A stretch of 64,000 bases of DNA from Antedon mediterranea (lineage: Eukaryota; Echinodermata; Crinoidea; Comatulida; Antedonidae): assembly GCF_964355755.1 (NCBI RefSeq), contig NC_092678.1:17644922-17708921 (forward strand), given 5' to 3'. The translations under genes were made by a program, and so were the position numbers. How positions within the stretch are numbered: the stretch's first letter is position 1; every line of letters begins with the position of its first letter. Below the pieces are notes generated by a model that worked only from the letters and a program-made list of their open reading frames with translations, did not search any database and had not been told where the DNA came from. Shown one piece after another: positions 25,474-62,183 of this stretch.

Positions 25474-25545
25474 AGTATTGTCAATGATTTCAAACCATCA
25501 AAAACGTTTTCTGGTAATGTAGTTATTTGGTTACTGGACAACGAT
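25474..25545 (-). CDS. LRR exon 8 (72 bp), intact
   Basis: Acceptor TTTTCAG before 25545 and donor GTGAGT after 25474. The 72 bp, phase 2-2, encode one leucine-rich repeat: SLSSNQITTLPENVFDGL then KSLTIL, matching LxLxxNxIxxLPxxxFxGLxxLxxL. It is the last LRR exon seen in the window. Its acceptor and donor types group it with the exons at 34048, 32691 and 25697. Confidence 0.8.
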
Positions 25546-25696
25546 CTGAAAACCGTGAAAATGCAATACATAAGTTTAGTTTTGGATGAATATTCTGTCT
25601 TTGCAAAGGATAAAAAATGAAATGATGTGACAATAAGTGTGGTTTTATAACAACAAAAATATACTATTTTCAAAAGTATTATAAACAAGTGAAACA

Positions 25697-25745
25697 TTCG
25701 AACACATTTGCTGGTAATGTTGTTATTTGGTTATTGGCCAACCAC
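25697..25745 (-). pseudogene. LRR exon 7, truncated
   Basis: A good acceptor (AATTTTCAG) and the first two thirds of a repeat (WLANNQITTLPANVF) are present. The remainder and the donor are missing: about 35 bp present in the neighbouring exon at 25474 is deleted, and reading on meets a stop. It lies within a roughly 220-bp tandem duplication of the exon at 25474 and its flanks. Confidence 0.75.
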
Positions 25746-26169
25746 CTGAAAATTGTGAAAAATGTAATAAATACTATATACAGTACCAAGGGATAGGATG
25801 ATAAAACATTATATATTTTATATATAATTTAGAAAAACAAACAAAACATAACAATACATATCTTATTGTGCCAGCAGAGGTCAAGTCCAATTAGGCGTGT
25901 CACTCCAGAAATGAAACCATTACAAGGTATATACAAGGACATACTAATACTTGTTTAATGTTACTTTAGCTCGTATTATCATTATTTGCATGTTTTAACT
26001 GTTTTTCATTAACTTCTTCTACAGGATATATAATTATGTTTTATCTGTATTTTACTGTAATCATGTTGTACTTTGCATATCATATGATGACATAGATCAA
26101 TATCTACGATACAATACAACCGTTAAATGACGATGATCCATGTGTTCTGCTATATTTTTACGTTTTGTT

Positions 26170-26289
26170 ATGGCCGCCGATGGTGCTACAGTAAACAATA
26201 AACAATGCCAAATAGAAAAACTCAAAAAGAGCAAAAAGAAAGATATTACATTTGAACGTATTACGCATGAAACAGACATATTTCATTGA
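26170..26289 (+). pseudogene. Recurrent short frame MAADGATV..., copy 1
   Basis: ATG in good initiation context (GTTATGGCC) opens 39 codons: MAADGATV then a lysine-rich tail. Three further copies are at 28815, 34543 and 43695, each with a different indel pattern after the first dozen residues. It looks like a duplicated first-exon or retro-derived relic. I do not recognise it. Confidence 0.3.
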
Positions 26290-26966
26290 AGTATTAATTC
26301 CTAAAATAAAATAATTGTTTTTATGAGGAAAAGAGTTAAACTGACGTTTTCATGAGAGGAAGATATATAATATTTGTTCCTCATGCAAAATAAGCTTATT
26401 ACAACACTATTACACTAAAGCATAAAGTTACACTTAACTGTGCTTTAAAATAAACATAATTTAAAGCATTACACAGTATAGGCCAATAGTTCACCCGATA
26501 ACAATTTCTGATTTGTCCAAATTTTTTTTTTTAAATCTGACAAATATAAACATGAAGAAATAAAAAAACATGTCGTTAATATACATCAGACTTAAGAATA
26601 ATGACATCAATTTTCGATAATCATAAGGACGAGTTCTCTCATTTGTGCCCATGGAATTGATATTTCCTAAGTTCACCTAACTACGGAGGAATAACGCATT
26701 TATATTTATATAATGACTACATTAATCATAATATTTAATGATGCTGTGTTATCGAATTTTCTATGTTACTGGAGAAATCGGGATACAGTACCGATAATCA
26801 GGTGTGTTAGACCAGAATACGTTACTCCGGCTTAAAATGGAGGTATTTGCTTTAACCACGTTCTGAAATGTGTCTGTAAGATTATGTTAGGCAAAAACAA
26901 CACCTTGTATGCCTTAGCAGCCTGGTCTAGAGACCTATGTATTGCCTTCGCTAAATCCTTTCTTAA
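26290..26966. repeat. Duplicated block (with 34700-35800), no clear gene
   Basis: Colinear with 34690-35800, including the segments near 26490-26700 and 26740-26960. The end of this block is the related, EnSpm-free sequence matching the target of EnSpm-like copy 2. Confidence 0.6.
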
Positions 26967-28037
26967 CACTTTGACTGCCAGAGGTTTTTCCAGTTAGAAA
27001 CTGCCACCGCCAGCGTTTTTAGCCCAATTCGATGTTTTTATTAAAGCTGATTGAAACCATGTATGTGATCTGATTTGTATGTAATTTAGACTAAAATAAT
27101 CATAAAGATTTTAACTTTACAATGGTACCAAGAACGATTTTTAAATCGCAATATGTAAATCGTAATAGTAAAATGAAAGTAACCCACTTTTTGAATTTTT
27201 CGTAGTTTCGCGCAAGAAAGTCGAGATATTCGCGATTTTGTGCAAGACATCACAATATGAAAATATCGCCCGGTGAGATCAACAAACAACGAAAAAGTTA
27301 CTTACACGGCACCGATAGGCCTATACTATAAAAACAAGTTATCACTATCGAAAAATGTATTACATTTTATAAATCATAAATCTTACATCAATGTTTCGCC
27401 AAAATCCACATAGTAAAGACACCAGGCCTAATTAACCAGGTCTAAAGTTGGTCCGAAACCGTTTTACGACTAGGGCTAGGCTAGCCTAGTACTAACTAGC
27501 CTAGGCCTAGGCCTAGCTAGGAGATAGTAAACTGATGATAATAACCATACCATTTCAAAACAAGTTTGTTGCGTGAAACTCGGTCACTTTCAGTAAAACA
27601 CTAAAACAATTAGGGTATACATACAATAATAAAATTAAAGACTTCATATTGAAAATGACTCCATTATTTTTTATTCATATTTATAACAAACAAACATGTC
27701 AATCCACAAAAACCTTTGTAATGCTTCAGCGGCATAGCTAGCGCGCGACCGATACACAATGCGCCAAGCCATCGCTCTACGCGCTAACTGTGATGCGCGG
27801 TGTTTGTTATTTCGACAGGTACCATTTTGACAGTCGTTCGTAACCAGATTAGTTACTTTCAAATTGTAAAATATTCACGGTCCAGACCGAATATAGTGTT
27901 CATATTTATAGTATATACCAATAATTAACCTATCTACCGGATTTCGTAAAAAAACGCGTAAAACGAAGATCTTCGTTTTTGGCAGTCAAGCGTTGTGTTT
28001 CCAAAAACGAAGATCTTCGTGTTTGGCAGTCAAAGTG
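26967..28037. mobile_element. piggyBac-like non-autonomous element (1071 bp)
   Basis: Ends are CACTTTGACTGCCA and its exact inverse TGGCAGTCAAAGTG, flanked by TTAA on both sides (26963-26966, 28038-28041). The related locus at 42960-42975 has the same flanks joined by a single TTAA, which is the empty site. TTAA plus a C-C/A-CTTTG-CTGCCA end is the piggyBac signature. Two palindromes around AAACGAAGATCTTCGTTT lie inside the right end. The internal frame at 27671-27862 on the minus strand is not recognisable as transposase. Confidence 0.85.
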
Positions 28038-28041
28038 TTAA

Positions 28042-29090: not shown

Positions 29091-29618
29091 GAATCGGTAA
29101 CGAGTCGGTGACAAACCGAACGGATCATCCAGGAGTTCTGAAACGTCTGGCCAAGTGCGCTCTCTTTGCGCAGTATTATACGGAGGCGTGTCTATTTTTA
29201 TTTTCGTATCTAATTTTGGCTTTAAAAACATGTCAGCCCAAAACAATCGCTACCACTGGATCCGCCCCGTCGGAATATTGTCGATATAAAATGATGGAGG
29301 TTCAGACGTTCTGTAGTACATTTAAATTGTATTATTTGTATTCCCTCTTTAAACTTCATCTTAATTTCAATATAATAATATCAATTAAGTAATATTGTTT
29401 ACTTAGAAGTATGCCAGTTATTCAGCACTTAAGAAAACAAAATCAGAAAAATGTAAACACATGTTACCAGGTTTTTTTAAAACATTAATACAGCTAAGTG
29501 TGTTAATTAATTAGATGTAAAGCACATTTTAGCATGAAGAAGTGAAAATATGGAGGGAAAGAAAACATAAAGTGTAGACACAGATATCACCTCACAAGCA
29601 ATCTATTGCTGACCCAGT

Positions 29619-30641: not shown

Positions 30642-31512
30642 AAGTCTATAAAGTATTAACTTACAGTATTGAAAGTGATGAAGCAAAAGCAGAAAATGCA
30701 CCTTGATCTATGGTAGTTATAGCGTTACCATATAAGTACCTGCAAATATTGAAAAAAAAGACACACATTTCAAATTATTAATAATAATACTGTACAACAA
30801 TACAATAAATAGATAACCACTACATTTGTCTGCTATATTTCACAGTACAGTTATTTGTATTCAGCATTTCAGTGGGCGATTTAGACTTCGTTTGGCACTC
30901 GAAACAATGTCAAATGAAAGGCAGGCTAATTTTTGCCATTGTGTACAATTCCAAACAGATATCACCTCAACTTTATTTATAAAACTTGAAAATCAGAAAA
31001 AAAGGGGAGAAGGTAGTGTATTATTTGTGGTTGTTGCCAGATGCCTAAACTCTAGAAAATGATAAATTAAGTTTATCTTACGGACGGATAACGCTAATAA
31101 TAACAATTATTAATTCATAGTTATGCTTTATAGCTTTTTGAGGTTTTTTTTTGTGCACTTAGAAGAACTTATTTAAAGTGCATTTTAAGTATTGTTTTTC
31201 TTCTAGATTATTTCAGTCATCACAATAGTTAATATTTGTTTTATTTGGAGGTTCAGACTTAAACACAAAGTACAAATGTATATAGTGCACTATGCTGTGT
31301 GAATTAAAACTGAAACACAAAACCACCACATTAGGTAACCGATGCGCCCTCATTATGACGTTTTTTTATAAGAGAAAGATACAAACCATGTGTTGCGCGT
31401 GCGAATAAAGAACAAGTGCAGCTATTCCAATGTACGGAGGGAAAGATAACCAATGCCTCTCATAAAAACATTATTTTTCACTTAATAATATTTACTAATA
31501 ATGATAATAACA

Positions 31513-32690: not shown

Positions 32691-32762
32691 AGTTCTGTCA
32701 ATGATGTCAAAACATCAAACACATTTGCTGTTAATGTAGTTATTTGGTTATTGTACAAGTAC
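32691..32762 (-). pseudogene. LRR exon 6 with a lost donor
   Basis: Acceptor TTTTCAG is intact and the 72 bp encode a repeat (YLYNNQITTLTANVFDVL then TSLTEL). The donor position reads GAGAGTG where the related exons have GTGAGTG, so the invariant GT is gone. The LP pair of the consensus is LT here. Skipping this exon would not shift the frame. Confidence 0.75.
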
Positions 32763-34047: not shown

Positions 34048-34119
34048 AGCCCTGTCAATGATGTCAAACCATCAAACACGTTTTCTGATATTGTAGTTAT
34101 TTTGTTACTTTCCAACCAT
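34048..34119 (-). CDS. LRR exon 5 (72 bp), intact
   Basis: Acceptor AATTTTCAG and donor GTGAGT flank exactly 72 bp in phase 2-2. Encodes WLESNKITTISENVFDGL then TSLTGL, a complete leucine-rich repeat with the Asn ladder position and the F-x-GL turn. The usual LP is IS. Confidence 0.8.
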
Positions 34120-35763: not shown

Positions 35764-36084
35764 CTGTAAGATTATGTTAGGCAAAAACAATACCGTGTAT
35801 ACACAGCAAAATTCTGATTCTTGTTTTAAGAAAAAAAAAACTTGTTTCAAGCAAAATATTTCTTGAAACAAGTAAATTTTGACTTGTCCGTATTTCAATA
35901 CTTTTTGGCTTACCAAGAATCGTAAAATTCTTAACAAGAATCACACAAATTCTTATCAAGAAAATTATTCTTACCAAGAAATAATACTTTAAGAACAATA
36001 TTCTTACCAAGAATTTAATTGCTTTTTTCATTCTTGTTTTAAGCAGTATCTGCCTTAAAATAAGTAACAATTTATCGATTTTTT

Positions 36085-37700
36085 AAAATAGAATTCTTGT
36101 TTCAAGCAATATTTTTCTTAAAATAAGTAAGAATATTCCGATTTGTATTTTTTTGAATTCTTGTTTCAAGCAATATATTTCTTAAAATAAGTAAGAATAT
36201 TCCGATTTGTATTTTATAGAATTCTTGTTTCAAGCAAGATATTTCTTAAAATAAGTAAGAATATTCCGATTTGTATTTTATAGAATTCTTGTTTCAAGCA
36301 ATATATTTCTTAAAATAAGTAAGAATATTCCGATTTGTATTTTTTTGAATTCTTGTTTCAAGCAAGATATTTCTTAAAATAAGTAAGAATATTCCGATTT
36401 TTATTTTTTGAATTCTTGTTTCAAGCAATATTTTTCTTAAAATAAGTAAGAATATTCCGATTTGTATTTTTTGAATTCTTGTTTCAAGCAATATTTTTCT
36501 TAAAATAAGTAAGAATACTCCGATTTGTATTTTTTGAATTCTTGTTTCAAGCAATTTTTTTCTTAAAATAAGTAAGAATATTCCAATTTGTATTTTTTGA
36601 ATTCTTGTTTCAAGCAAAATATTTCTTAAAATAAGTAAGAATATTCCGATTTTTATTTGTAGAATTCTTGTTTCAAGCAATATTTTTCTTAAAATAAGTA
36701 AGAATATTCCGATTTGTATTTTTTAGAATTCTTGTTTTAAGCAATATTTTTCTTAAAATAAGTAAGAATATTCCGATTTTTAATTTTAATATTCTTGTTT
36801 CAAGCAATATATTTCTTAAAATAAGTAAGAATATTCCGATTTGTATTTTTTGAATTCTTGTTTCAAGCAATATTTTTCTTAAAATAAGTAAGAATATTCC
36901 GATTTGTATTTTTTGAATTCTTGTTTCAAGCAATATTTTTCTTAAAATAAGTAAGAATATTCCGATTTGTATTTTTTGAATTCTTGTTTCAAGCAATATA
37001 TTTCTTAAAATAAGTAAGAATATTCCGATTTATATTTTTAGTTTTCTTGTTTCAAGCAATATATTTCTTAAAATAAGTAAGAATATTCCGATTTTTATTT
37101 GTAGAATTCTTGTTTCAAGCAAAACTTTTCTTAAAATAAGTAAGAATATTCCGATTTGTATTTTTTGAATTCTTGTTTCAAGCAATATTTTTCTTAAAAT
37201 AAGTAAGAATATTCCGATTTGTATTTTTTGAATTCTTGTTTCAAGCAATATATTTCTTTAAATAAGTAAGAATATTCCGATTTTTATTTGTAGAATTCTT
37301 GTTTCAAGCAATATTTTTCTTAAAATAAGTAAGAATATTCCGGTTTGTATTTTTTAGAATTCTTGTTTTAAGCAATATTTTTCTTAAAATAAGTAAGAAT
37401 ATTCCGATTTATATTTTTAGTTTTCTTGTTTCAAGCAATATATTTCTTAAAATAAGTAAGAATATTCCGATTTTTATTTGTAGAATTCTTGTTTCAAGCA
37501 AAACTTTTTTTAAAATAAGTAAACAAGAAGTCTATCAAATAAAAACCAGTAAATGTTTACTTATTTTAAGAAAAGTATTGCTTGAAACAAGAATTCTATC
37601 AAATTAAAATTCGTAAATTCTTACTTATATTGGGAAAAAAATTGCTTGAAACAAGAATTCTATAAAATATAAATCATTAAAAATTTATTTTAAGAACGAT
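36085..37700. repeat. Subterminal 63-bp tandem array (copy 2)
   Basis: Reverse complement of the array at 22600-24170, again 63-bp units. It yields long spurious minus-strand frames (36294-36680, 36673-36996, 37030-37248). Confidence 0.9.
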
Positions 37701-40018
37701 AAATGAATACTCATTTTAAGTAATATTTTACTTAAACAAATAAATTCAAGAATGTTATAAAACATAATATTAACAATACTGTTATTTTCATTAAGAACTA
37801 CAATTTACATGACATTAGGTACAATAATATATACAACTTCTTTAAAACAAACTTGTTTTTATTAATAATAAAATGCCATCAAAAGAAAACTTAAAAACAT
37901 TAAAATGGTAAAATACAAATTTCGTAAAATTCTTCTCCCGCACCTGGGCTTTAAACTATTAGGTGTCTTTAAATTTATTAATGTATACTAATGATGATTC
38001 AACAGCCTTTGTCAAGTGTACAGGTGTGTTTTCATCACAAATCACTAACTGTTAAAGGATAGTGAGGCCTTTTTCTTTTCATTTTGGATAATCGAAATCC
38101 AGAAGGTAAAAAGTGGAGAGGAGAGTAACTAGAGCCTCATCTAATTTTGCTTTCTTTGTAGTTAGAATTGTTTGCTAAACTTTAATGTAGGCCATTTCTG
38201 TGTCCAAAAGCAATACCGGCATATTACCTGATCGGCGTGAAGACCAGGATTCTGGATCTTTATTCATGTTCCTAAAAATGAAAAGAGATTAATATAGTTT
38301 TAGTTATTACTGTATTTAAAATATGTGTAACATCATCAACTAATTGGGTACGGTGTGGTTTTAGAGTCCTATATCTGGGGCGGTAAACACAAAAACATGA
38401 CGCAATATTAGAACGGTGGTAAGAATAATTTTACATTATAAGACATAAGGGTGGGTGGAATATGCATTTGAACTTTTTAATCACAAACTTTGCCCTGTTT
38501 ATACCGATCCCAAAGACAGGCCTGGCTGTATCTATTATTTTTAGTTAAATTATTAGGGTCTAAATTTATTTTTAATATTACTATTTAGGAAGACAATACG
38601 CAAAACGGTGCTCAATCCTGATTGATGTTTTTATTCCGTATCAATGTTTATAATAACAATCATACAATTAAATGTAAATTTTGTTTAATTGTTTGATTTT
38701 AATAAATTATTGTAAACATAGTATATACCTCGAATTTTAAGCTAAGATAAATTTGATTTTAAAAAAACACTTTAAGATATTTTTTTTTAATGTACATAAT
38801 GTTACTTGTATTTTAAATTTTTAAAAACACTAAATACCTTCAAGGTCGGCAGACTTTTTTTGATGAGTTTTTCCCAACAAATATGTTTGACAGATTTGAC
38901 AACATATGGGTTATCTTTGAACCTAACCAAAAATAACAAATTGAAAACATTATATTATATAAATTTATTTAAATGAGTGGAATAATGTATGGACATAAAC
39001 TTGATATACTGTAGCTCAAATTTTTAATAATGTAGCCTACAGTTTTGTAGGTGGTCAATGTAAAAGGAAGGGGAAAGGGTGGGCTGGCCAGGAGAGCATT
39101 AATATGTCAAAAATTAATATTCATAAGTCATTTATTTAATTTTAGTTGTCAAAGGGAGGAGTGCATGACACTAGCTTGAGTCGAACCAAGCTGTTAAAAA
39201 TACGTACAAAATATGTACACGTATTTTCCTCACTACCATTGGTCCATTATAAAACTATTTATGAATAGATAAAATTACAAAAACATACACTGTACTTACC
39301 AGATGGAGGACTGGTGTTTCTCTTTAAAATACCAAAATAAACTATATTATTCTCTTCTTTGGAAAAATTTGCTAAGCACTTTTTTAAAAAGCTTTCTTTT
39401 GTATTTCATTCCTCTTTGCCTAGTAATAATTAGTATCCTTCGAACTTCTTCAATTACCTAACAAATAATTTAAGATATTGTAAATAACACAGTTTTTTAA
39501 AAAGAAATTTAATATAACAATTTTAGTTATGCAGTACGTATGTTTTTTGTTTGTTTTTGTAGTATGTTTTTTTTTAAATTTAGAGTTAAAAACATAAAGT
39601 TTCAATATCGATGTGATCACTTTGGGGATTACTTAGTGTGTACAATTAATTAAATATAAAGAAGTGTTTTTAAATGTCATTATATTTCTCATTGGAATAT
39701 GTGTATATAATACAGTACAGTATAATCCTTCGTAGATATTTCATGGCTACATTACAAAATAACTGTTACATTATAATTGTATTATCTATTATTAGGCCTT
39801 CCTTATACCTAGCTGAAATAGGTCCGACAATATTTGTCCCCTCTGTCAATGTCTGAACTAAAATGCTAAGCTAAACCTATACACCTGTCCGTCAGTACAG
39901 GCATAGTAGGCTAGCCTAGACCTACTAGTTCCAGGCCTACAGTATTACTAACTAGGAAGGAGCCTAGGCTAGGCCTAGACTGCTGGCAGATTAAAATTTA
40001 ATTATTAGGCCTACGAAC

Positions 40019-40085
40019 CTGTTAAAATGTTGGCCACTTCTTCATCTATTTCTCGGATCTTCAACAAAGCGTCTTCCTTCGACAT
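40019..40085 (-). CDS. Short exon-like frame inside the EnSpm-like element (copy 2)
   Basis: Identical in sequence over 67 bp to 20182-20248, reading MSKEDALLKIREIDEEV on the minus strand, with the same G|GTTCG donor-like end. Conservation of this piece against small changes around it is suggestive, but the element is young enough for that to be chance. Confidence 0.35.
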
Positions 40086-41379
40086 TATATTAGACTAATC
40101 TTACTAGGCCTATTGAAGCATTTAATATATAAATTGCGATGAAAGGTGTCTTTTACTTACAAACTCTAGATTTTGAATGATTACTTTAAAAAACCGTTGG
40201 CCATGATCCCGCCGGGAGCTAGGTCATCGACCACACACAGTGTTGTTTTTCAACTATTTTCAAAAATTTATCGCTGGCCTTTTACCCAGAATGTATAAGG
40301 TCATTATACTGCTCAACGTTAAAGCATGGAGGTATAAACCTCCATGGTGGTTAAAGCAAATCTATAAAACGTCTGGACCAACAGTAATACGACAGACAAT
40401 AATAATGACACATGTTTGTTGCAGTCCGAAAAAAAGCGATAAGTTGGTGCCAGTAAACTGAAGTAGGTACAGTATTTGCTACCCTATTTGCTAAGGCATT
40501 ATAATTCAATTCATGGAAATACTCCAAATTTTCGAGTAACATGTGGAATTGGTGGTTCGCTGCCCGGCAAGCTTTGGAATTTACAATCATAAGACGCCAT
40601 TTTAAAGACGAGTATAACAATCGGCAACCTCCTGCAGTTGACGATGGAAACATCAGTATATAAGTATGCCTGGAGAAAACGAGGATGCCAATTGAGGATG
40701 AAGTAGAACTAGGCCTAGACTAGGAGACTGACGAAGTTAATGAAGAAAAAAACTATTATAACAGGGATGATTTATCAACTGACGATAGTAGTAGTGATAA
40801 TTCTAGTATTGTTATACTGTTAATGATTGTTTAATATTAATTATCTTGTTGATGCTCAGCAAGAAGGCCTACTAACTAGAGGATGAACAAGCAGATAATA
40901 GTATAAAAAATGCTGATTTCTTTCTACTAAAATTAAAGGAGAGAAACAAGATTCCACAGGTAAGCCATTTTGCTTTAAAATTACAACAATTATGCATTTT
41001 AAACTATTTTTTATTAGAGAAATACGTCTATTTTCTAGGCCTTGCTGGTACTGTTATTATACAGGACTATTAGCTATAGTAACTATAGGACTTGGGTACT
41101 AGGCCATTTTTTTGTGACCAATTTCATTGTTACAAATAACATTTTTTTTGTTAGGCTGCATAGCTCCCCAACTAAAGCACAACTTAGTTTTTAAACATAT
41201 TAAAACTTGAATATAAAAAATATTAAATCAATATTATTTTCTTTAGGTTGCAGTGCAATCGATTATTCAAAGCACAAACAGTTTGATTACCCAGATTTTT
41301 TCATCAGTTGAAACTGAAGTGCTAACTGCTCTACCGTTGTGTGAATATAGGATATTGACAATCTATTTTAAGTAAAACA

Positions 41380-42120
41380 TTTCTCAAAATAAGTATTTTT
41401 AAGAATATTAAAATAGAATTGACTTCAATTCAAGCAAAAATAGTCTTGATAGGATATAGTATGATATTGACTTCTTATCTTAAGTAAACCATTTCTCAAA
41501 ATAAGTATTTTTTAAAATATTGCGAATCTCAATTTAAGCAAAAATAGTCTTGATAAGATAGTATGATATTGACTTCTTATTTTAAGTAAAACATTTCTCA
41601 AAATAAGTATTTTAAAGAATATTGCGAATCTTGATTCAAGTAAAAATAGTCTTGATAAGATAGTATGATATTGACTTCTTATTTTAAGTAAAACATTTCT
41701 CAAAATCAGAATATTGCGAATCTGAATTCAAGCAAAAATAGTCTTGATAGGATAGTATGATATTGACTTCTTATTTTAAGTAAAACATTTTTCAAAATAA
41801 GTATTTTTTTAAATATTGCGAATCTCAATTTAAGCAAAAATAGTCTTGATAAGATAGTATGATATTGACTTCTTATTTTAAGTAAAACATTTCTCGAAAT
41901 AAGTATTTTTAAGAATATTGCGAATCTTGATTCAAGTAAAAATAGTCTTGATAAGATAGTATGATATTGACTTCTTATTTTAAGTAAAACATTTCTCAAA
42001 ATAAGTATTTTTTAAAATATTGCGAATCTCAATTTAAGCAAAAATAGTCTTGATGAGATAGTATGATATTGACTTCTTATTTTAAGTAAAACATTTCTCA
42101 AAATAAGTATTTTTAAGAAT
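41380..42120. repeat. Subterminal ~102-bp tandem array (copy 2)
   Basis: Inverse of the array at 17180-18855 with fewer units. More diverged units continue to the terminus at 42913. Confidence 0.85.
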
Positions 42121-42915
42121 ATTGCGAAACCTAATTTAAGAAACTTTGTCTTACCTAGAAAAATATTTATTGTTTTAAGTAATTTTTAGAATTCATCAAT
42201 CTTGATTTAAGAAAAATTATTCTTGATAGGGATAAATATAATATTGATTTCTTATTTTAAGTAAAATACTTTTCAAATTAAGTATTTTCAAATCTTGTTT
42301 TAAGCAAAACTATTCTTAATAAGAAGAGAATGATATTGACTTCTTATTTTAAGTAAAATATTTATTGTAATAAGCATTTTCAAGAATATTGCGAATCTTG
42401 ATTCAAGTAAAAATAATCTTGATAAGAGTAGTGTGAAATTGACTTCTTATTTTAAGTAAAATATTTCTCAAAACAAGTATTTTCAAGACTATTGCGAAAC
42501 CTAATTTAAGAAACTTTGTCTTACCTAGAAAAATATTGATTGTTTTAAGTAATTTTTATAATTCATCAATCTTGATTTAAGAAAAATTATTCTTGATAAG
42601 GATAAATAAAATATAGATTTCTTATTTTAAGTAAAATACTTTTCAAATTAAGTATTTTCAAATCTTGTTTTAAGTAAAACTATTCTTAATAAGAAGAGAA
42701 TGATATTGACTTCTTATTTTAAGTAAAATATTCTTGTAATAAGCATTTTCAAGAATATTGCAAAACTTAATTTAAGAAAATGTGTCTTTTCTAGAAAATT
42801 GTTTCTTGTTTTAAGTAATTTTAAATCTTGACAAGAAAAAAAATACTTATTTTAAGAATTTTTTCTTAAAACAAGATTTTTTTTTCTTGCTTAGAATTTC
42901 AAATTTTGCTGTGTA

Positions 42916-45688: not shown

Positions 45689-45760
45689 AGTGTAACCAAT
45701 GACGTCAAACCAACAAATTCATTTCCAGACAATGTAGTAATGCCGTTAGAGCTTAAATCC
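45689..45760 (-). CDS. LRR exon 4 (72 bp), intact
   Basis: Acceptor TTTTGAAG and donor GTAAGT enclose 72 bp in phase 2-2 coding DLSSNGITTLSGNEFVGL then TSLVTL. Splice signals and sequence group it with the exons at 47310, 49343 and 52431 (AAG acceptor, GTAAGT donor), unlike the left-hand group. Confidence 0.85.
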
Positions 45761-47309: not shown

Positions 47310-47381
47310 AGTGTAACCAATGACGTCAAACCAACAAATTCATTTCTAGACAATGTAGTAATGCCGTTACTGCCTAAATCC
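47310..47381 (-). CDS. LRR exon 3 (72 bp), intact
   Basis: AAG acceptor, GTAAGT donor, phase 2-2. Codes DLGSNGITTLSRNEFVGL then TSLVTL, differing from the exon at 45689 by only two residues, so this pair is a recent duplicate. Confidence 0.85.
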
Positions 47382-47650: not shown

Positions 47651-47941
47651 TTGGAACTTGTTCCGCCAGAGATGGTTCCTGATCAAGTTCAAACTATCAA
47701 ACACGTCGCAGGAAGCGTGGACAAATGTAGAAAACGCGTCAAAAAACTTCAAAGGAACAATTTAAAACCTCCAATGCCATCTGTTATTTTTGGTAACGCG
47801 CACTCACTCAAAACAAGTGAAATGGCTGCAAATGTATTCGAATACAGGGACAGTTGCCTTATGGCGATCACTGAAACTTGGCTAATTGAATCTTTTCGGA
47901 TCATGGATCAACAAATTGTTCTTGTTATCTGGAATTATTAA
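47651..47941 (+). pseudogene. LINE endonuclease N-terminal fragment, copy 2
   Basis: Second copy of the same remnant (PPMPSVIFGNAHSLK, ITETWLIES) within the duplicated block; slightly different indels. Confidence 0.75.
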
Positions 47942-48095
47942 CAGTTGCTCTTCGTCCCTTTTACTTGCTAAGGGAATTCTAGCAGGTTCTAGTCATCATT
48001 ATCTATATGCAGACTTCAAAGTAGCTTGCGCTAAAGTCGCTGAGGTAGATATAGGCACATAAGCTGCAAATCTCCAGATTCAATAAAGCTGTTAC

Positions 48096-49342: not shown

Positions 49343-49414
49343 AGTGTAACCAATGACGTCAAACCACCAAATGTATTTTCATGCAATGTAGTAATGTCGT
49401 TACTGTTTAACTTC
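49343..49414 (-). CDS. LRR exon 2 (72 bp), intact
   Basis: AAG acceptor, GTAAGT donor, phase 2-2. Codes KLNSNDITTLHENTFGGL then TSLVTL. Confidence 0.85.
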
Positions 49415-49918: not shown

Positions 49919-50540
49919 AACTTGGCTAAATGAATCTGTTTCGGATCATGGATCAACACATTTTTCTTGTAATCTGGAATTATTAACAATTGCTCTTCGT
50001 TCCTTTTACTCGCCAAGGGAATTCTAGCAGGTTCTATAGTCATCATTATCTATAGGCCTATACACCCAAAAGAATACTTCAAAGTAACTTGTGCTAAAGT
50101 CGCTGAGATAGACACATAAGCTACAAATCTCCAGATTCAATAAAGCTTGGTGATTTCCACAAACGATCCCATAAAGAGCTTACAAAGGTTATTCCACACC
50201 TTTATCAATATGTAAACGTTGCTACGAGAGAAGGCACTATATACTTGATAATTATGTGCTATGGATATGTTAAAAATGCTTATACAGCCAAGAGATGTCC
50301 AGGCATTTGGCGGTCAGATCACGAATTGATACAACATGATCCAAAGCTATAATTCACGAACATAGGAAGCTTCAAAATGAATATGATACGCACATTATCT
50401 TAGTTTCTTTAATTATGATATTCATTAGACCTACATTGGCATGGGTTTACCCACTGTGAACTGTAGTGCTGCTTTTTTTTATTCTTCAGTTCGATTCTTC
50501 CTGTATAGTATTGTTTTATTTATTTATTCTATAGAAGGTT

Positions 50541-52430: not shown

Positions 52431-52502
52431 AGTATAACCAATGATGTCAAACCACCAAATGCATTTTCATACAATGTAGTAATGCCGTTACTGCTTAAAT
52501 CC
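52431..52502 (-). CDS. LRR exon 1 (72 bp), intact
   Basis: AAG acceptor, GTAAGT donor, phase 2-2. Codes DLSSNGITTLYENAFGGL then TSLVIL. The first base completes the TT|G leucine codon begun by the LRR cap exon at 53769, so the joint is in frame. Confidence 0.85.
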
Positions 52503-53768: not shown

Positions 53769-53904
53769 AAGAATGTTATTGGTTGATGATTATTGTAGTT
53801 CCTGACGGATTCTGCTGTTGCATTAATATATTTCCGACAGCTTAAGTAGTTAAATATGCAATCGCATCCAGTTGGACATATCTGTTTTAGGAATAATAAT
53901 TGTT
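53769..53904 (-). CDS. LRR N-terminal cap exon (136 bp)
   Basis: A strong acceptor (ten T then ACAG) ends at 53905, and donor GTAAGT follows 53769. The exon enters in phase 1 and leaves in phase 2. It reads QLLFLKQICPTGCDCIF, later YLSCRKYINATAES. C-P-x-x-C-x-C with a fourth Cys seven residues on is the LRRNT signature. NAT is a possible N-glycosylation site. A second CAG at 53884 is possible but would break the phase with the CUB exon. It caps the hydrophobic edge of the LRR solenoid. Confidence 0.85.
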
Positions 53905-55080
53905 CTGTAAAAAAAAAATGTTTGTAAAATTAGGTACTAGTTTCGAATTTACCTAAATGGACAGTAAAACAATAGCTATAAAAATGTAATAACTATGTTT
54001 GTCATTTAACTATTAATTGTATAGGACTTGGCTCTTGAGTAGGACTAGACGTTGTGAAAAGGTAGATGTATCTTAAGTTTAGGTCATTCTTCAAAGATAT
54101 CATAATCTAATATCATTTTGATACATTACTGTTGTACATGTGCAATTTTGGATTTGTGGATTTGACGCACACTGGATAAATATTGATGTTTTTTTCTTCA
54201 AATGTCTCTCAATTTTGTGTCCAATTACGTCTGCCGGTGGAATTTGTATAGTCTCTAACAATGCACCATCACCGAGTTGGCCGCATTGGCCGCCTTCTCC
54301 TGAGTAGGGGTCAAAGAGCCAGTGTTGTGGTGGAATAATGTTTTATAATTCAGGTGATTCATTATTGTCTCGTTTCTAACAATATCGGAATTTTTACCGG
54401 GATGAAGTCTCTTTTGCAAAAAGAAGCTTTGTGTTATGTTTGTTTAGAAACCTCTTACTATTACGTTTGTGAATTTTTTCCAATTGATCAATTGTTTTTG
54501 CAGAGGTTTTTTAAAGATTTTAGGTTGTCCAGGGAGCGTTTGTTTGCCTAATTCTCTGCAATCTAAGGTTGTGTCTAATTATCAATCAAGTAAAGAGCTT
54601 AAACTAGATTATGATTAATTACTGTAATTGAATATTTAATTAATGGCAGTAACATAGCCTAGATTATAGAGTATAGACAGCGATTCAGATTAATATTTGT
54701 TATAAAATCAAACAACAAACGTAAAAGACTTTAGTATATAATAGCTATCTTCCTTGTATTAGCTACAGTGTTTTATTTTAGAATTTTTGCAAGTAGTGTT
54801 TCTCTGTTTTAAAAGTATCTTCTATCAAATCGCCTAAAAAAGCCTAATCAGGTTAATACATTACACTTTTTCAGTAACTTAGGGGTTATTAGTTTACAAT
54901 ACGTCGCGAAACGCGTTACACTTAGCGACTGACGCGTTTATTTTTTTTTTAATATTTATAATACAATTATGTATTATTAATTTTTAAAAAACATTAAAAC
55001 CTAAATAACCTACTGAATACAAAATATATTCATTGTATCCTAATTTCAACATTTTTTTTTTATCTTATGTGGGTTCATCC
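53905..55080. other. Intron 2 proximal part, no gene seen
   Basis: The frame at 54354-54551 has no recognised domain. No further CUB-like exon found. Confidence 0.4.
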
Positions 55081-55572
55081 CACTTTTATTTCCATACAAC
55101 TGTTCTCTTTACATATATTTTTCATATACACTATACATATCATTATATTTACAATGTTTGTTTAATCATCTGTTTACATATATCTTTTTAAACATATTAT
55201 CTGTAACACATTTTCATTAACAAGCTTATTTTTTTCTTACATAGGTCTAGTTGTTTTTGATTTTTTCATCTACCACATTTTCATTTAACAATGCAAATTC
55301 TCTGTTATACTCATTACTTACTAAATGTTTACTGTTAACATAATATTGTTCTCATCCTTTAACATTAATATTAATATTTTGTTCTTTAATGTTTACAAAA
55401 CTTTTATTTCCAGCAGATTATCCTTTTTTTTTGCATCTATAACTTCTTAAATTTTATTTTATTTTAACCACATTGATTACATAGTTTCCTCTTTTTATAC
55501 ATATTATCTATAACACATTTTCATTAACAGAGCTTATTTTTTCTTACATAGTTATTTTTGTTTGTTTTCATC
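55081..55572. repeat. T-rich ~300-bp tandem repeat in the intron
   Basis: The segment around ACACATTTTCATTAACA recurs at about 55200 and 55510, and related sequence resumes after the inserted element at 59330-59600. Confidence 0.6.
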
Positions 55573-55574
55573 TA

Positions 55575-58500
55575 GTGGAGTCTGTTAGGGATATTTTGGT
55601 TCACTTTTTTCCAAAAGCATCAAATTTGGTATACAGGTTGCCCACCCTATACAAATTAAATTTTTGATGGGCGCCAAGCAAAATGACCCCTTGGGTCACC
55701 TAATTTGCATAATTTTAAATGGCGGACACTTTCGCTTAAACAGTCTATATCTCTGAAACTACTGGTCATAGAGAGTTGATTTTTAGCTCAAAATGTTCAA
55801 AACATAAACATTCCTATTTACTCTAATGAAGTATTTTTGAAAAAAAATGACCGGAAGTACCAGTTTTAACCTTTGACCCATATTTTAAGGCATTGCCATA
55901 TCTCAGTAAATAGTTGTCACAGACAGTTTATTTAAGTGTCAAATTGTTCAGAATATATATGTTACTATTTAGTTTAATGAAACATTTTATCCAAAAATGA
56001 CCGGAAGTACTCAGTTTTGCCTTTGACCGTTACGGTGTAATTACCAACCTTGTTACGGTTAATATATTTTGATATCCATAAAACTACTTGTCATAGAGAG
56101 TTAATGTTTGTGTCAAAATGTTCAGAACATAAACATTTCTATTTACTATAATAAAGTTTTTTCTAAAAATTGCCATATCACATTATTGGGTTGGCGTGGA
56201 AAGTTCATTTTGGTGTCAGATTGTTCAGAATATATGTTACTATTATGTTTAATAGAAGATTTTTCCAAAAAATGTCAGGAAGTACAGTTGACCTGTTACA
56301 TACATAAAATTATAAATTTGTTCAAGTTAACTGTATATTTATATTATTTTGCAATCCACTTTTGAGCACTTGTCAAAGATGGCTACTTTGCATGTGCAAT
56401 TGAACGAAGTATACTGAATGAAGTTGAATATAGTCCTATTTGTAGTGAGTCTAGAGTAACGCAAATGAGAGAAAATTGTATAGACAAAAAACACCCAATC
56501 TCATTCTCATCTAATCGAGTACTTAAATGAAGTCTTCTACACATTTAGCAATAATGTTTACTGATGAAATCTATTCAAGTTTTGTTTTGGAAAGTTAGTG
56601 TTTCCATCACTTGTGTTTGTTTGGTTGTTACATTCAGGGTAATTGTCCTATATTGCATTTCTTCGCTGAGTATCTTTCTTTAATTAAGTATAGTTAAGTT
56701 TGTTCATGACCAAATTAACGGCAAAACACCACATCAAACAATGGAATACTTTTATTTAATTACACATAATGCTAGTACCAGATTTAGTAATAGATATAAT
56801 TTTGCAATTCCGAAAGCTCGCACAGATGCTGGTAAATTTAGAATTTCTTTTAATGGAGCTCAACTTTGGAATAATTTACCCTTAGTTATAAAATGTACCT
56901 CTTCTAGATTTAAATTCATAAATGAAGTTAAATGTTTACTTTTACAAAAATATTAATGTTAGCCCTTGTTTACGTTATTTCTTTCATATAGTTGCTGTTT
57001 CTTTCTTATTGAATTATTGTTGATAGATGAAAATGTATGCATTATGACTAATTTATTTTTTGTGAAAGGAGTCAAACCTTGATTAGCGAAAGCTATTTTT
57101 TGGCTCCTTTTCACACACACATACATTTTATTGTATTGTACTATTTATGTATGATGATGTGAATAAAGTTGATATAAGTATAAGTTTAAAGGGCCTTCAA
57201 ACTGGGGTATAACCTACTAATTAAAAGGATGGACATTTTCGGGATGCACAATATAAAAACTAGACTACTGTTGCCATATCACGAACCACAACTGAAAAAT
57301 ATATTTTTTCCACCAGACCTAAAGTAATCCTTGGTCCGCCAAACTTGGCAGAATTCTCGAATTTTACTTTTTAAAAATTTGGCCATCATCTGGACACGAT
57401 TTGGGTATTACAGTTTTGTTACTTATGACATTACGCCTTAGTATCATCTTTTTCATTATTGCCTTTTTACTTGATTTTTGGTTGATTAGTAAATGTTAAA
57501 TTGTTGTTATATTGGAATTGGTAACAATTCTTGGCTTGTGTAACATAATGTATTGATGAGCTGTTTTAACCTCATGAACAGATTTACTTTTATTACTTTC
57601 ATTTCTTTTATGTACATTTTCAAAGTATTGAATGTGTCCTTTCTCAATCGAGTATTTGGAAAATAATGGCTTATTCAAACTTCTTTAGCAATCCTTGAAC
57701 AGTCTGGTTGGTTCAGTCACCATAAGCACATGTATGGTAATTGTAATATTTTCAGTGTTCTCGTAAAGACGAAATGCCCCATCATGTTCTGAGCTTGAGT
57801 ATGATATTGTTTCTTAGAAATGAGGCTAAACCTTTTTGTTGATTTTTGCACAACATTTCCATTCATAAAATTTCCATTGTTCACATAGTCAAGGACATGC
57901 AATACAGAGTTCATTTTAAGTTTGAAAAAAGGGCAATATATGAAAAAGAGGATACTAGAGCGTAACATGTCATTAGTAACAAAACTGTTCCTATTCATCC
58001 AATCTCTTCTAGATGATTACTGTATATGGTCGATTTCTTTTTCTTTTTTTTTATTTGAAAATCTTTGAGAACCACCAAGCTGGACTTAGGTCTGGAGGAC
58101 AGAAATCTTCGGTGTCTTTTCCCCATTCAGTAGTTGTTCGTGTTATGGCAACAAAGAGAAATGTAGCAACATGAAATTGTTATGCAACAGCAAACACAAG
58201 TGACGGAAACACTAACTTTCCAAAACAAAACTTTTACTGGATTTCATCAGTAGGCCTACACATTATTGCTAAATATGTGGAAGACTTCATTTAAGTACTC
58301 GATTAGATGAGATTGGGTATTTTTTGTATATACAATTTTCTCATTTCTCATTTACATTACTCTAGACTCACTACAAATAGGACAATCTATTCAACTTTGT
58401 TCAGTATACTTTGTTCAATTGCACAATGCAAGCAGCCATCTTCGACATGTGCTCAAAAGTGGGTTGCAAAATAATATCATAAATATACAGTTAACTATAC

Positions 58501-59322
58501 AATTAACTGAACAAATTTATAAATTTTATGTATTTAACAAGTCAATAACTATACTTCCTGACATTTTTTTGAAAAGTCTTCTATTAAGCAGAATAGAAAC
58601 ATATATATTCTGAACAATCTGACACCAAAATGAACTTTCCACTCCAACCCAATAATTTGATATGGCAATTTTCCTGAAAAAGCAGGTCAAAGGTCAAATA
58701 TGGTATTTCTGAACATTATTTGAGAAAAAACGTTATTATAGTCAATAGAAATGTTTATGTTCTGAACATTTTGACACCAAAATTAACTCTCTATGACAAG
58801 TAGTTTTATGGATATCAAAATATATTAACCGTAACAAGGTTGGTAATTACACCGTAACGGTCAAAGGCAAAACTGAGTACTTCCGGTCAATTTTGGATAA
58901 AATGTTTCATTAAATTAAATAGTAACATATATATTCTAAACAATTTGACACTTAAATAAACTGTCTGTGACAACTATTTACTGAGATATGGTAATGCCTT
59001 AAAATATGGGTCAAAGGTTAAAACTGGTACTTCCGGTAATTTTTTTCAAAAAAAACTTCATTAGAGTAAATAGGAATGTTTATGTTCTGAACATTTTGGG
59101 CTAAAAATCAACTCTCTATGACCAGTATTTTTAGAGATATAGACTGTTTAAGCGAAAATGTCCGCCATTTTAAGTTATGCAAATTAGGTGACCCAAAAGG
59201 TCATTTTGCTTGGCGTCCATCAAAAATTGAATTTGTATAGGGTGGGCAACCTGTATACCAAATTTGGTGCTTTTGGAAGAAACTGAACCAAACACCCTTA
59301 TTTCAGCCCTAACAGACTCCAC
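55575..59322. mobile_element. 3.75-kb element with ~1-kb inverted arms
   Basis: Ends GTGGAGTCTGTTAGGG and CCCTAACAGACTCCAC are inverted, with TA on either side (55573-55574, 59323-59324). The arms (55575-56625 and about 58190-59322) stay complementary throughout with scattered differences. The spacer holds a LINE fragment and a minus-strand frame at 57717-57998 that I do not recognise. The transposon class is unclear: a TA duplication is compatible with several groups. Confidence 0.7.
56690..57185 (+). pseudogene. LINE C-terminal fragment
   Basis: Frame 56741-56956 includes GKFRISFNGAQLWNNLPL and a C-terminal K-F-I-N-E-V-K region, the ending typical of LINE ORF2 proteins (G-x-x-LWN-x-LP). 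A 3' tail with GAATAAAG follows. Inserted in the spacer of the inverted-arm element. Confidence 0.7.
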
Positions 59323-59324
59323 TA

Positions 59325-60523
59325 ATCAACATATTTATTTCATACAATTATAATATGTTTATGTTTAATAAATCCATCCCATTGGTTTGTCCCATTTTAT
59401 TTTTCTTTGGATTTATCTATGCAAACATATTTTCATTTAAACAATGCATATTCTCTGTTATACTAATTACTTACTAACTTTTTACTGTTAACATTATATT
59501 TTCCTCATCCTTTAACATTGATTTTTTTTTTATCTTTAAATGTTTACAACATTTATTTCCAACAGATTATCCTTTTTTTTTTGCATCTACAGTATAACCC
59601 ATCAAAGTTTCATTTAACTTTTATTTTTCGTATGTGGGTTCATTCAATTTTTTTTTTTACTTATTATTTATTCTATTATTTTTTTATACATACATTATCA
59701 TTTAACAACATTTATGTTTAATGATCCATTAAAAAAAATTATACATTTTTTTTTCTTTTTAACCATTTTATCATTTCAAAATTCCACATGCAGTAAGAAT
59801 GTGCAAATTACATATATATATACCTATAATATGAAAGCTTTGATGAAAACACTTCACCACTTAAACCTAAAACCTTCTTATCCTTCATCATTTTTTTATC
59901 ATCAATCTATAAAAAGCTTTTCACATTTTGTCTTTTTGTTTTCAAATCATCAAGGTATACATATTTACAAAACATACAATATAGAAGTAAAAAAAAAAAA
60001 ACATAATAGATTCATCATTCATGGTATCTCATCCTAATTTCAAAATTAATATTAAACGCACCCATTTTTTTGAATTAGCATACTCAGGAATGTATTGTCC
60101 CACAAAAGCATGAAAAAAATAAAGATTTTTTATTATTCTTCATTTATCAGACTTATAATAGGCTTTTTTTTTAGTTTTAATAAAGTTAAGCAATTCCATA
60201 GAAAAGACCGAAATTATAATGTTTCTACTTATAAAAAGACAAAATAAACAGATTAGGCTAATTTCAACACAACCTCATTGAACTGGCAGCGCAGCTAATT
60301 TGATTATTTCCTTTTTCAAGTAAATATATTTCTTAAAATCCAATTGGTCAATGTGAATAACTCTTATGTGACATTAAAATAGCATATTCAACAAAAAATT
60401 CCAAAAAATATATTTTTTCAAGGGATAAAAAATCTTCAATTCTCATTTTACTCATATTTCAGGTTATAGCCTAAAATGTGAATAATTTCTTGCACCAATT
60501 AAATTTAAAAATAACTCACTTAC
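59325..60523. other. T-rich intron, no gene
   Basis: Long T and A runs and remnants of the ~300-bp tandem repeat. Frames at 59518-60037 are composition artefacts. Confidence 0.5.
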
Positions 60524-60865
60524 CCGGTGGAACAATTACTGCTGTAACTGTTGCATTAAATCCTCTCTTTGTTACAATATCATCAGTAGCTAAAGCAATC
60601 CGCATTGTGTTGTTGTTGGAAACTAGAGAATCAAATGTTAAACCTGTAAACCTAACTTTATTTTCATTTCCTGCAAATGCTATATCCAAATAATCCCATC
60701 CGTCCTCCAGTTGAAAGTCGTTGAACTCAAGATAAATGAACAACTCTGGAGAGGTTGTAACCATCCATTCACACTTTAAATTGTTGTCGTAGTTCTTCGG
60801 ATAATTAGGAGACCAAAATGCATATGATGAGTTCTCAGATTCAAGATGAATATCCTGGTTACATT
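60524..60865 (-). CDS. CUB domain exon (342 bp)
   Basis: Acceptor TTTCTCTTGCAG precedes 60865 and donor GTAAGT follows 60524; phase 1-1. Reads ECNQDIHLESENSSYAFWSP, NYPKNYDNNLKCEW, LEDGWDYLDIAF, later NNNTMRIALATDD. The F-x-SPNYP-x-x-Y and C-x-W motifs, the acidic LED/DYLD calcium-site region and the RxxLxTDD strand are CUB hallmarks. Only the first disulphide pair of cysteines is present; the second pair common in CUB is missing. N-glycosylation sites NSS, NNT and NAT are visible. CUB modules bind protein or glycan ligands outside the cell. Confidence 0.9.
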
Positions 60866-61049
60866 CTGCAAGAGAAATAAGATAATAATAATACACGGAA
60901 TGTAGGCCTATTGTTACTATTGTATTGATAGAAATATAGCGTGATTAATAATTTAGGTAATCACAATATTTGATATTTTCAAAATAACCTTAAAGGTAAT
61001 ATATCCGGCTAATCCTGTATATCTAATTGTTAATGATGGTTTTAATATG

Positions 61050-61200
61050 ATAGGCCTAATAATGATAAGGATAATGATAATGATAATGAAAATAATAATA
61101 GTTCATTCTTATAGCGCATTATAAGCAAGCTCTCAATGCGCTGCACATTATTACCCCGGGAATTGTTTTGGATAATACACGTATGAAAACATACTCCCAT
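61050..61200 (-). mobile_element. 5'-truncated SINE, same family as 30329
   Basis: On the minus strand it matches the SINE body (GGGAGTATGTTTTCATACG), GGGGTAATAATG and the GCGCTATA tail followed by ATT/ATG repeats at 61060-61100. Confidence 0.7.
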
Positions 61201-61679
61201 ATTACTAGTTATTTTTACCTATCCATGTGATTTTATATATAGTTTTAACAACAATTATTGTCATTTAATCAGGCCGTGCTACAGTATAAAATAGGGTACA
61301 CAAAATACATGAAATTACATTAGATTACAAATGTACAAATAGTAATTAATCAGTAATTGCCCCGGTCCAGTTATCCCATTTAGGCCTATAAAAGTGTGAA
61401 TTTTATCAATTATTACCTATTGATGAAAAATATTTGATTTGTGTGTATACTTCGTAAATAAAGTCCGTTTACTACCAGGTGTCCAGTTTTAACTGTACAA
61501 GGAAAGTTAGCACCTACTCTTAACCTAAATCTGCACATGCGCCAAAGCTTGGTGTTCACAAACATGTGTGTACCAGGTAAATACGATTTACCAATAACAT
61601 AGCCTTCTTAACTTAATGTAAAATTAAATAAACAACAATCGTCTGACTGACTTCATGTTATTGTTTAAACTCATAGTCA

Positions 61680-62060
61680 GATAATTTTTAGTATGTTATA
61701 TAGAAAGAGAATCACGATTGATAAAGAGAGATAAACACATTTGAGTAAAATTATGATTTCCAATGAATTCTTAAATGTTGACAATTAGTTGGGCAATTGT
61801 TTTTTATAACTTTGTTTTACAGAATTGTAGTTTTCTGTAGAAAAGGAATCACGGTTTCTCCAGATAGAAATGATTTTGTAAAATTGCGGGGAATTACAAA
61901 TTCCAATCCACACATTATAAGTTTTTTAAAAATCTGTCGGGAAATTGTTACTATGTTCTACAGTATTGACCATTTTTCTGTAGAAAGAGAATCACGGTTG
62001 GTAATTGCTCAAGATAGAAACGATTGTGTAAAAGTGTGGGGAATTACGACTTTCAATCAA
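61680..62060. repeat. ~145-bp tandem repeat in intron 1
   Basis: GTAGAAA-GAATCACG recurs near 61702, 61836 and 61980, and GATAGAAA-GA-T-TGTAAAA with GGGGAATTAC twice. Diverged copies. The frame across them (61797-62084) is not called. Confidence 0.6.
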
Positions 62061-62122
62061 TTCTCAGATATGTTTTTGATTTAAAAAGTTAAACAAGTTG
62101 AAGTACTTGAAAGCATACTTAC

Positions 62123-62183
62123 GAACAGAACAGCTTGAAAACGGTACAACAACCAACAACATGATAACGCTAAAGATAAACAT
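62123..62183 (-). CDS. Signal peptide exon with start codon
   Basis: ATG at 62181-62183 in AACAAGATG context opens MFIFSVIMLLVVVPFSSCSV, a short hydrophobic leader with a plausible cleavage after FSSC/S. Donor C|GTAAGT leaves phase 1, matching the CUB exon, so the joined codon is CAA. Earlier in-frame codons lack ATG. The 5' untranslated region and promoter are not defined. Confidence 0.8.

What the first reader, a model, noticed from the sequence alone, without database searches (positions are those of the whole stretch)
25474..62183. A CUB-plus-LRR ectodomain gene assembled from ten short exons over 37 kb
Signal peptide, CUB, LRRNT and LRR exons all lie on the minus strand, in domain order, and every joint is phase-compatible (1-1, 1-1, 2-2). 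The LRRNT exon only fits the CUB exon if the strong polypyrimidine acceptor at 53905 is used, which supports the model. I know of no well-described family with CUB directly before an LRRNT cap and single-repeat LRR exons; LRR GPCRs are the nearest layout.
Basis: partly seen in the sequence, partly recalled or inferred. Interest (0 to 1): 0.75.

Follow-up and report, generated by a model that had tools for sequence, protein, structure and literature searches.

The report
Feather-star CUB plus leucine-rich-repeat receptor gene
This stretch of what looks like a feather-star genome carries the outer half of what is probably a cell-surface receptor gene, related to hormone receptors such as the relaxin receptor, whose binding repeats are each encoded by one small gene segment and seem to be changing unusually fast.

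Summary
Ten intact, phase-compatible exons lie on the minus strand at 62183-25474 (signal peptide, CUB, LRRNT, seven single-repeat LRR exons). An eleventh (15797-15723) was missed, and two LRR exons are broken (32762-32691 lost its donor GT; 25745-25687 is truncated). Pfam: CUB 4.9e-15, LRR_8 1.9e-78. No LDLa, hinge or seven-helix region was found in the window.

Best identification: ectodomain of a GRL101-like LRR-GPCR (type C2 LGR) of an Antedon-like crinoid. The two 75-nt exons encode a 25-residue repeat found in 10 of 185 retrieved proteins, all Antedon mediterranea receptors of the GRL101-like group, always just before the last repeat and hinge. None of 66 related GPCRs matched this CUB; here it is a symmetric 1-1 exon between signal peptide and LRRNT.

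LRR exons sit in tandem duplications. In 5 of 12 copy pairs the exon differs more than its flanks (uncorrected P<0.05); among A2-A4 all changes are non-synonymous, but a broken exon shows the excess too. The layout resembles brown-algal ROCO LRR exon arrays. The seven-helix exons and transcription are unseen.

The parts
62123..62183 (-). exon 1: start codon and signal peptide, ends in phase 1
   Evidence: Open frame with hydrophobic stretch MFIFSVIMLLVVVPFSSCSV (by eye) and GTAAGT donor
60524..60865 (-). exon 2: CUB domain, symmetric phase 1-1, 342 nt
   Evidence: Pfam PF00431 4.9e-15; solved CUBs of cubilin, enteropeptidase and neuropilin match
53769..53904 (-). exon 3: LRRNT cap, phase 1 to 2
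   Evidence: CPTGCDC...C motif (by eye; no Pfam LRRNT hit); NYNNHQPITFLDLSSN resembles NYNQHCPIKSLNLSSN of Antedon P0123; polypyrimidine acceptor
52431..52502 (-). LRR exon A1, 72 nt, phase 2-2
49343..49414 (-). LRR exon A2, 72 nt, phase 2-2
   Evidence: tandem copy of A3 and A4 with introns
47310..47381 (-). LRR exon A3, 72 nt, phase 2-2
45689..45760 (-). LRR exon A4, 72 nt, phase 2-2
34048..34119 (-). LRR exon B1, 72 nt, phase 2-2
32691..32762 (-). LRR exon B2, open frame but donor reads GA instead of GT; probably skipped
30665..30739 (-). LRR exon C1, 75 nt, phase 2-2, 25-residue repeat shared with Antedon GRL101-like receptors
25687..25745 (-). LRR exon B3, truncated, no donor; dead
25474..25545 (-). 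LRR exon B4, 72 nt, phase 2-2
15723..15797 (-).

Best explanation
This is the 5' part, nearly all of the ectodomain, of a GRL101-like leucine-rich-repeat GPCR (type C2 LGR) of an Antedon-like feather star. A CUB domain has been spliced in as a symmetric 1-1 exon between the signal peptide and the LRRNT cap.

How it most likely works: the secreted end folds as CUB, then N-cap, then a solenoid of about eight or more LRRs. The last LRR, hinge and seven helices lie to the left of the window (inferred). The LRR concave face binds an unknown ligand and the CUB adds a second contact surface (both inferred).

Every intact LRR exon is 72 or 75 nt and phase 2-2, so duplicating, deleting or skipping one exon lengthens or shortens the solenoid by exactly one repeat without breaking frame (shown from sequence). 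The exon-plus-intron units have been duplicated, and the exon copies differ more than their flanks in 5 of 12 pairs (shown, uncorrected). In the A group this is almost wholly by amino-acid changes at non-structural positions, consistent with selection for new binding surfaces. In the B and C groups synonymous sites are raised too, which fits exchange of sequence between LRR exons better than selection alone (inferred).
For: Exon model and open joined frame; Pfam CUB and LRR. The 25-residue C repeat is up to 83% identical to Antedon proteins over 22-23 residues. It is found in 10 of 185 retrieved proteins, all Antedon receptors of the GRL101-like group (nine so named, P0134 named 'uncharacterized'), as the penultimate repeat before the hinge; 0 of 3 Anneissia members have it. 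LRRNT end plus first LRR aligns with P0123 (20 of 34 columns). A clade of 11 Antedon plus 3 Anneissia receptors is supported 99/96, with the LDLa-bearing Antedon P0133 next to it (34 of 66 proteins used). Exon versus flank divergence: A2/A3 12/72 vs 84/1541, P=8e-4; B2/B4 13/72 vs 58/1063, P=3e-4; C1/C2 10/75 vs 32/923, P=7e-4. A2/A3 12 N: 0 S, A2/A4 12:0, A3/A4 4:0, A1 with each of the others 7:1. In the A group no structural position of 8 varies (position classes recalled).
Against: No hinge or seven-helix coding found in the window, although 15.7 kb lie 3' of the last LRR exon. No match to this CUB in any of 66 related GPCRs, and no homologue of the CUB-LRRNT part in one protein search. The LRRNT exon alone gives no match to P0123, and its best matches are unrelated LRR proteins. 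In its Antedon relatives the C repeat occurs once; here it occurs twice with B4 between. Two of ten LRR exons are broken. Seven of 12 exon pairs show no significant exon excess, and A2/A4 (P=0.034) would not survive correction for 12 tests. Broken exon B3 shows an excess against B1 as well (14/57 vs 97/1013), which selection on protein does not explain. No RNA data. Species assignment is by similarity only.
Confidence: 0.7

Rival explanations
1. A CUB-LRR protein without seven helices: a secreted or single-pass decoy made from LGR-type exons, ending in an exon to the left of the window.
For: No hinge or seven-helix match anywhere in the window, including 15.7 kb after the last LRR exon.
Against: The C repeat is tied to a hinge and seven helices in 10 of 10 retrieved proteins that carry it; those proteins were mostly found with a seven-helix query, so this count is biased. 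Introns in this gene are long, so the hinge may simply lie outside the window.
Confidence: 0.12
2. A decaying locus: a transposon-rich exon graveyard derived from a receptor gene that is no longer expressed.
For: Two LRR exons are broken. The introns hold large transposon-like inverted repeats and satellites. In none of 12 pairs is the exon significantly more conserved than its flanks.
Against: Eleven exons keep open frame, phase and splice sites. In the A group structural sites are unchanged (0 of 8) while 8 of the other 16 vary; decay would hit both. In B and C, 1 and 2 structural sites vary.
Confidence: 0.12
3. The CUB exon and the LRR exons belong to two different neighbouring genes.
For: A 6.6 kb intron with a transposon-like element lies between them; CUB before LRRNT is unseen in the 66 relatives.
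Against: Same strand, domain order, good donor and acceptor, matching phase 1; the signal peptide exon also ends in phase 1. I did not search the intron for another start exon.
Confidence: 0.06

Closest known systems
Crinoid GRL101-like LRR-GPCRs (Antedon mediterranea P0083, P0121-P0128, P0130, P0134; Anneissia japonica P0129, P0131, P0132)
   Same: 24-residue LRRs; the 25-residue penultimate repeat (10 of these 11 Antedon proteins, 0 of 3 Anneissia); in P0123 a signal peptide followed directly by an LRRNT that resembles this one at its end
   Different: CUB present here and not matched in any of them; hinge and seven helices not seen here
GRL101 proper (type C2 LGR; Lymnaea, and P0133 of Antedon)
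   Same: LRR-GPCR lineage next to the crinoid clade
   Different: GRL101 has many LDLa modules; none found here
CUB-bearing type C LGRs of Nematostella (Nvec-LGR4) and Trichoplax (Tadh-LGR-5), PMC9545775
   Same: CUB in the N-terminal part of an LGR ectodomain
   Different: they also carry LDL modules, and fibronectin type II domains are reported (passages); sequences not compared here
Brown-algal ROCO receptors (PMC11378527)
   Same: one LRR per 72-nt phase 2 exon, tandem exon arrays, diversifying selection reported on concave positions (passages)
   Different: LRR-ROC-COR GTPases of an unrelated lineage; alternative splicing reported there, untested here
Gonadotropin receptor genes (LHR, FSHR)
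   Same: single-LRR exons in phase 2 (as cited in PMC11378527, passages)
   Different: no CUB, and stable repeat number (recalled)

Membership tests
crinoid GRL101-like LRR-GPCR | GRL101-like hinge and seven-helix domain | tested here: inconclusive
   Not in the window by tblastn and profile, but the gene probably runs off the left end
crinoid GRL101-like LRR-GPCR | 25-residue penultimate LRR with SS insertion (Antedon clade) | tested here: met
   Exons C1 and C2; pattern in 10 of 185 proteins, all Antedon receptors
crinoid GRL101-like LRR-GPCR | LRRNT cap of the P0123 type after the signal peptide | tested here: inconclusive
   20 of 34 aligned columns identical across the LRRNT end and first LRR, but most of this is LRR; the LRRNT exon alone gives no match to P0123 in the same call, and here a CUB lies between
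GRL101 proper | LDLa modules | tested here: not met
   No PF00057 in the joined exons; P0133 with its LDLa modules has no match in the window at E<=0.01
CUB domain | Pfam PF00431 above gathering score | tested here: met
   56.2 bits vs 21.4; the exon encodes two cysteines, so only one of the usual two disulfides can form (pairing recalled)
LRR exon array as in brown-algal ROCO genes | 72-nt phase 2 single-LRR exons in tandem | tested here: met
   two of the ten are 75 nt and one is truncated
LRR exon array as in brown-algal ROCO genes | alternative splicing of LRR exons | not testable with these tools
   no RNA data
LRR exon array as in brown-algal ROCO genes | diversifying change at concave-face positions | tested here: inconclusive
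   Exon excess in 5 of 12 pairs; N only in A2-A4; concave positions varying 4 of 6 in A, 5 of 6 in B, 3 of 6 in C (classes recalled); B3, a broken exon, also shows excess

The most novel reading that the evidence does not exclude
Feather stars run a fast-evolving repertoire of LRR-GPCRs in which single-repeat exons are gained, lost and exchanged between copies, and possibly mixed by alternative splicing, with interchangeable N-terminal modules (none, CUB, LDLa plus lectin). This would be an animal GPCR counterpart of the brown-algal LRR exon arrays, used to recognise variable chemical or microbial ligands.
Probability: 0.15. Interest if true: 0.8.

Novelty: new variant of a known kind. Interest (0 to 1): 0.5.

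Why it matters
Relaxin-type and GRL101-type LGRs are usually treated as conserved hormone receptors; PMC8286064 (passages read) reports one GRL101 orthologue per ambulacrarian species studied, crinoids included. The database holds at least 14 crinoid gene models of the GRL101-like group besides the LDLa-bearing one (three of them have near-identical seven-helix parts). This locus suggests that the group is growing, swapping N-terminal modules and changing its binding repeats quickly. If so, it offers a tractable animal case of ectodomain evolution by single-repeat exon duplication, and candidate chemosensory or immune receptors in crinoids.

Tried and rejected
The first LRR scans asked for an unbroken LxxLxLxxN motif and missed the exons, because the introns cut each repeat. 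A scan registered on the exon found them.

Homologue search with the CUB-LRRNT region inside a long query gave nothing; this says only that none of 500 word-sharing candidates of about 400-1270 residues scored. The relatives have the same length limits. Ten other ORFs of the window gave no Pfam family above cut-off; the rest of the window was not scanned with Pfam. Searching the window's own genome did not complete. Seven-helix remnants in the window: rejected, best profile hits E 0.64-0.87 against a reversed control at 0.49. The LRR profile was built from one unit only, because the script's pattern matched a single repeat; its hits agree with the exon model but add little independent weight, and the reversed control has one hit at 0.041.

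Self-overlap alignments (100% rows) were left out of the exon counts. The fixed 400-base flank comparison was replaced because homology ends inside some flanks.

Literature: 'CUB' with GRL101 was seen as a listing only; in the one paper of it whose CUB hits I looked at as such (PMC11863921) the CUB passages shown were journal codes. Searches are the searches in which I saw no report of this CUB-LRRNT crinoid receptor; most of their papers were seen as listings.
Full report
WHAT IS THERE. The window is 69% A+T (base counts). The order is signal peptide 62183-62123, CUB 60865-60524, LRRNT 53904-53769, then LRR exons A1 52502-52431, A2 49414-49343, A3 47381-47310, A4 45760-45689, B1 34119-34048, C1 30739-30665, B4 25545-25474, and, beyond the reported range, C2 15797-15723. 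Phases are 1-1, 1-1 and then 2-2 throughout, intact LRR exons are 72 or 75 nt, donors are GT and acceptors AG. Exon B2 (32762-32691) keeps an open frame but its donor reads GA; exon B3 (25745-25687) has lost its end. The joined frame of eleven exons (374 residues, the last from a partial codon) has CUB (4.9e-15, residues 31-126) and LRR_8 (1.9e-78, seven stretches) in Pfam. The LRRNT is assigned by its cysteine motif and place, not by a Pfam hit.

CHANCE. A pattern written from the LRR exons hits nine places, all on the minus strand: the eight intact LRR exons and B2. It hits none in the reversed sequence and four in total in 60 order-3 Markov resamples of 64 kb. The pattern was made from the exons, so the control speaks to chance occurrence, not to discovery.

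RELATIVES. A first protein search gave mostly general LRR proteins (best 120 of 349 listed), but one, P0083, is a GRL101-like GPCR of the feather star Antedon mediterranea. A second search used a composite query and scored only its LRR-hinge-seven-helix part. It returned 66 proteins; the best 15 are 12 Antedon (P0083, P0121-P0128, P0130, P0133, P0134) and 3 Anneissia receptors. Two further Antedon proteins, P0138 and P0140, are more distant and fall outside this group in the tree. The window's C exons encode a 25-residue repeat with an SS insertion. It is absent from Antedon P0121 and P0133 and from the three Anneissia proteins. The 185 proteins were found with queries that contained such repeats, so the sample is not neutral. 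The end of the LRRNT with the first LRR aligns with Antedon P0123 (NYNNHQPITFLDLSSN against NYNQHCPIKSLNLSSN, 20 of 34 columns). This is weak support: other LRR proteins match the LRR part as well, and the LRRNT exon alone does not match P0123 in that call. In P0123 the signal peptide leads directly into the LRRNT (by eye).

A tree of 34 of the 66 seven-helix domains (picked by me from those with organism names; some named ones were left out) puts 11 Antedon and 3 Anneissia receptors in one clade (99/96), each species a clade of its own (100/100 and 100/99). The LDLa-bearing Antedon P0133 joins them at 100/99 (midpoint root, some long branches). The crinoid receptors thus look like a lineage-specific offshoot of GRL101 that lost the LDLa modules and grew separately in the two feather stars. 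The N-terminal parts differ: P0123 and P0131 have LRRNT alone, P0133 LDLa modules with a lectin-like start (the latter by eye), P0134 an unassigned stretch, and the window a CUB. These are gene models and several look incomplete at the start. A phmmer scan with the window's CUB-LRRNT found nothing in the 66 at E<=10.

CUB. The exon is symmetric, 1-1, between two phase-1 junctions, the arrangement expected for insertion of a module by exon shuffling (general knowledge). Leaving it out keeps the frame. It matches solved CUBs of cubilin, enteropeptidase and neuropilin by sequence. It encodes two cysteines, so one of the two usual disulfides is missing (recalled rule).

NO SEVEN HELICES IN THE WINDOW. 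tblastn with P0083 and with all 66 GPCRs, and a profile of 15 crinoid hinge-seven-helix regions, found no such match in the window. The gene runs off the left end, or ends otherwise. This is the largest gap in the argument.

HOW THE ARRAY GROWS. The window's exons come in duplicated units. A2-A4 are spaced 1.6-2.0 kb apart, with aligned stretches of 0.9-1.7 kb that are 86-94% identical. A block with two B exons and one C exon is duplicated as a whole (25.6-26.7k with 33.9-35.1k, 24.4-25.6k with 31.6-32.8k, 14.5-16.8k with 29.1-31.6k; 80-93% identical). In each copy of that block one B exon is broken, B2 in one and B3 in the other.

EXONS AGAINST INTRONS. Twelve pairs could be compared (self-overlaps dropped). 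Exon divergence exceeds the flanks at uncorrected P<0.05 in 5 of 12: A2/A3 12/72 vs 84/1541 (8e-4); A2/A4 12/72 vs 106/1206 (0.034; 0.052 against the nearest 300 bases); B1/B3 14/57 vs 97/1013 (0.0012); B2/B4 13/72 vs 58/1063 (3e-4); C1/C2 10/75 vs 32/923 (7e-4). Four of these pass a correction for 12 tests. The other seven (A1 with A2, A3, A4; A3/A4; B1/B2; B1/B4; B3/B4) show no significant difference. In the ten pairs without B3, the share of exon-sized flank windows that reach the exon's count is 2.1% (A2/A3), 0.7% (A2/A4), 0% (B1/B4, only 29 windows), 0% (B2/B4) and 0% (C1/C2), and 38-88% for the other five. The pairs are not independent. In A2-A4 all changes are non-synonymous (12:0, 12:0, 4:0), and A1 differs from each by 7 non-synonymous and 1 synonymous. 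In the A group none of the eight structural positions varies while eight of the other sixteen do; in B one and in C two structural positions vary (position classes from recalled LRR numbering). In B2/B4 and C1/C2 the synonymous rate also exceeds the intron rate (0.166 vs 0.057; 0.115 vs 0.035), on very few sites, and broken B3 shows an excess too. Selection for new surfaces explains A; exchange of sequence between LRR exons, or intron homogenisation, is needed for B and C. I read the locus as a fast-changing LRR array with both at work, and mark this as inference.

KNOWN PARALLELS. In brown-algal ROCO genes each LRR is a 72-bp phase 2 exon, with exon shuffling, reported positive selection on concave sites and alternative splicing; the same passages note phase 2 LRR exons in gonadotropin receptors (PMC11378527, passages). 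CUB domains in LGRs are reported for Nematostella and Trichoplax (PMC9545775, passages). One GRL101 orthologue per ambulacrarian species is stated in PMC8286064 (passages); the crinoid receptors add to that. A crown-of-thorns starfish GRL101 with sensory-tentacle expression is in PMC6267866 (passages), the only hint to a sensory role that I saw. Type C1/C2 naming follows PMC11863921 (passages).

VERDICT. A real receptor-type ectodomain gene with an unusual module and an active exon array; a new variant of a known kind. The organism is inferred as an antedonid feather star from similarity alone.

Noticed in passing
16777-24441 and 35800-42915: Two inverted copies (94.6% over the 7.1 kb match) of a transposon-like element with short terminal inverted repeats (ACACAGCAAAATT) and large satellites inside, units of 63 and 102 bases among others.
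   Followed up: partly
55567-59329: Element with 1.1 kb inverted arms (85% identical) and matching ends (AGTGGAGTCTGTTAGGG) in the CUB-LRRNT intron; the two inner ORFs tested match no Pfam family.
   Followed up: partly
3208-6337: Direct tandem duplication of 1.57 kb, 99.7% identical, either very recent or an assembly duplication.
   Followed up: no
47917-48009 and 49971-50033: Plus-strand fragments matching the C-terminal part of the Antedon P0134 gene model, which looks by eye like a non-LTR retroelement fused into that model.
   Followed up: no
window 25622-25473, against P0126 residues 71-120: An Antedon gene model seems to contain translated intron sequence similar to the intron before exon B4 (44% over 50 columns), which would mean the window's species is close to Antedon mediterranea.
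   Followed up: no
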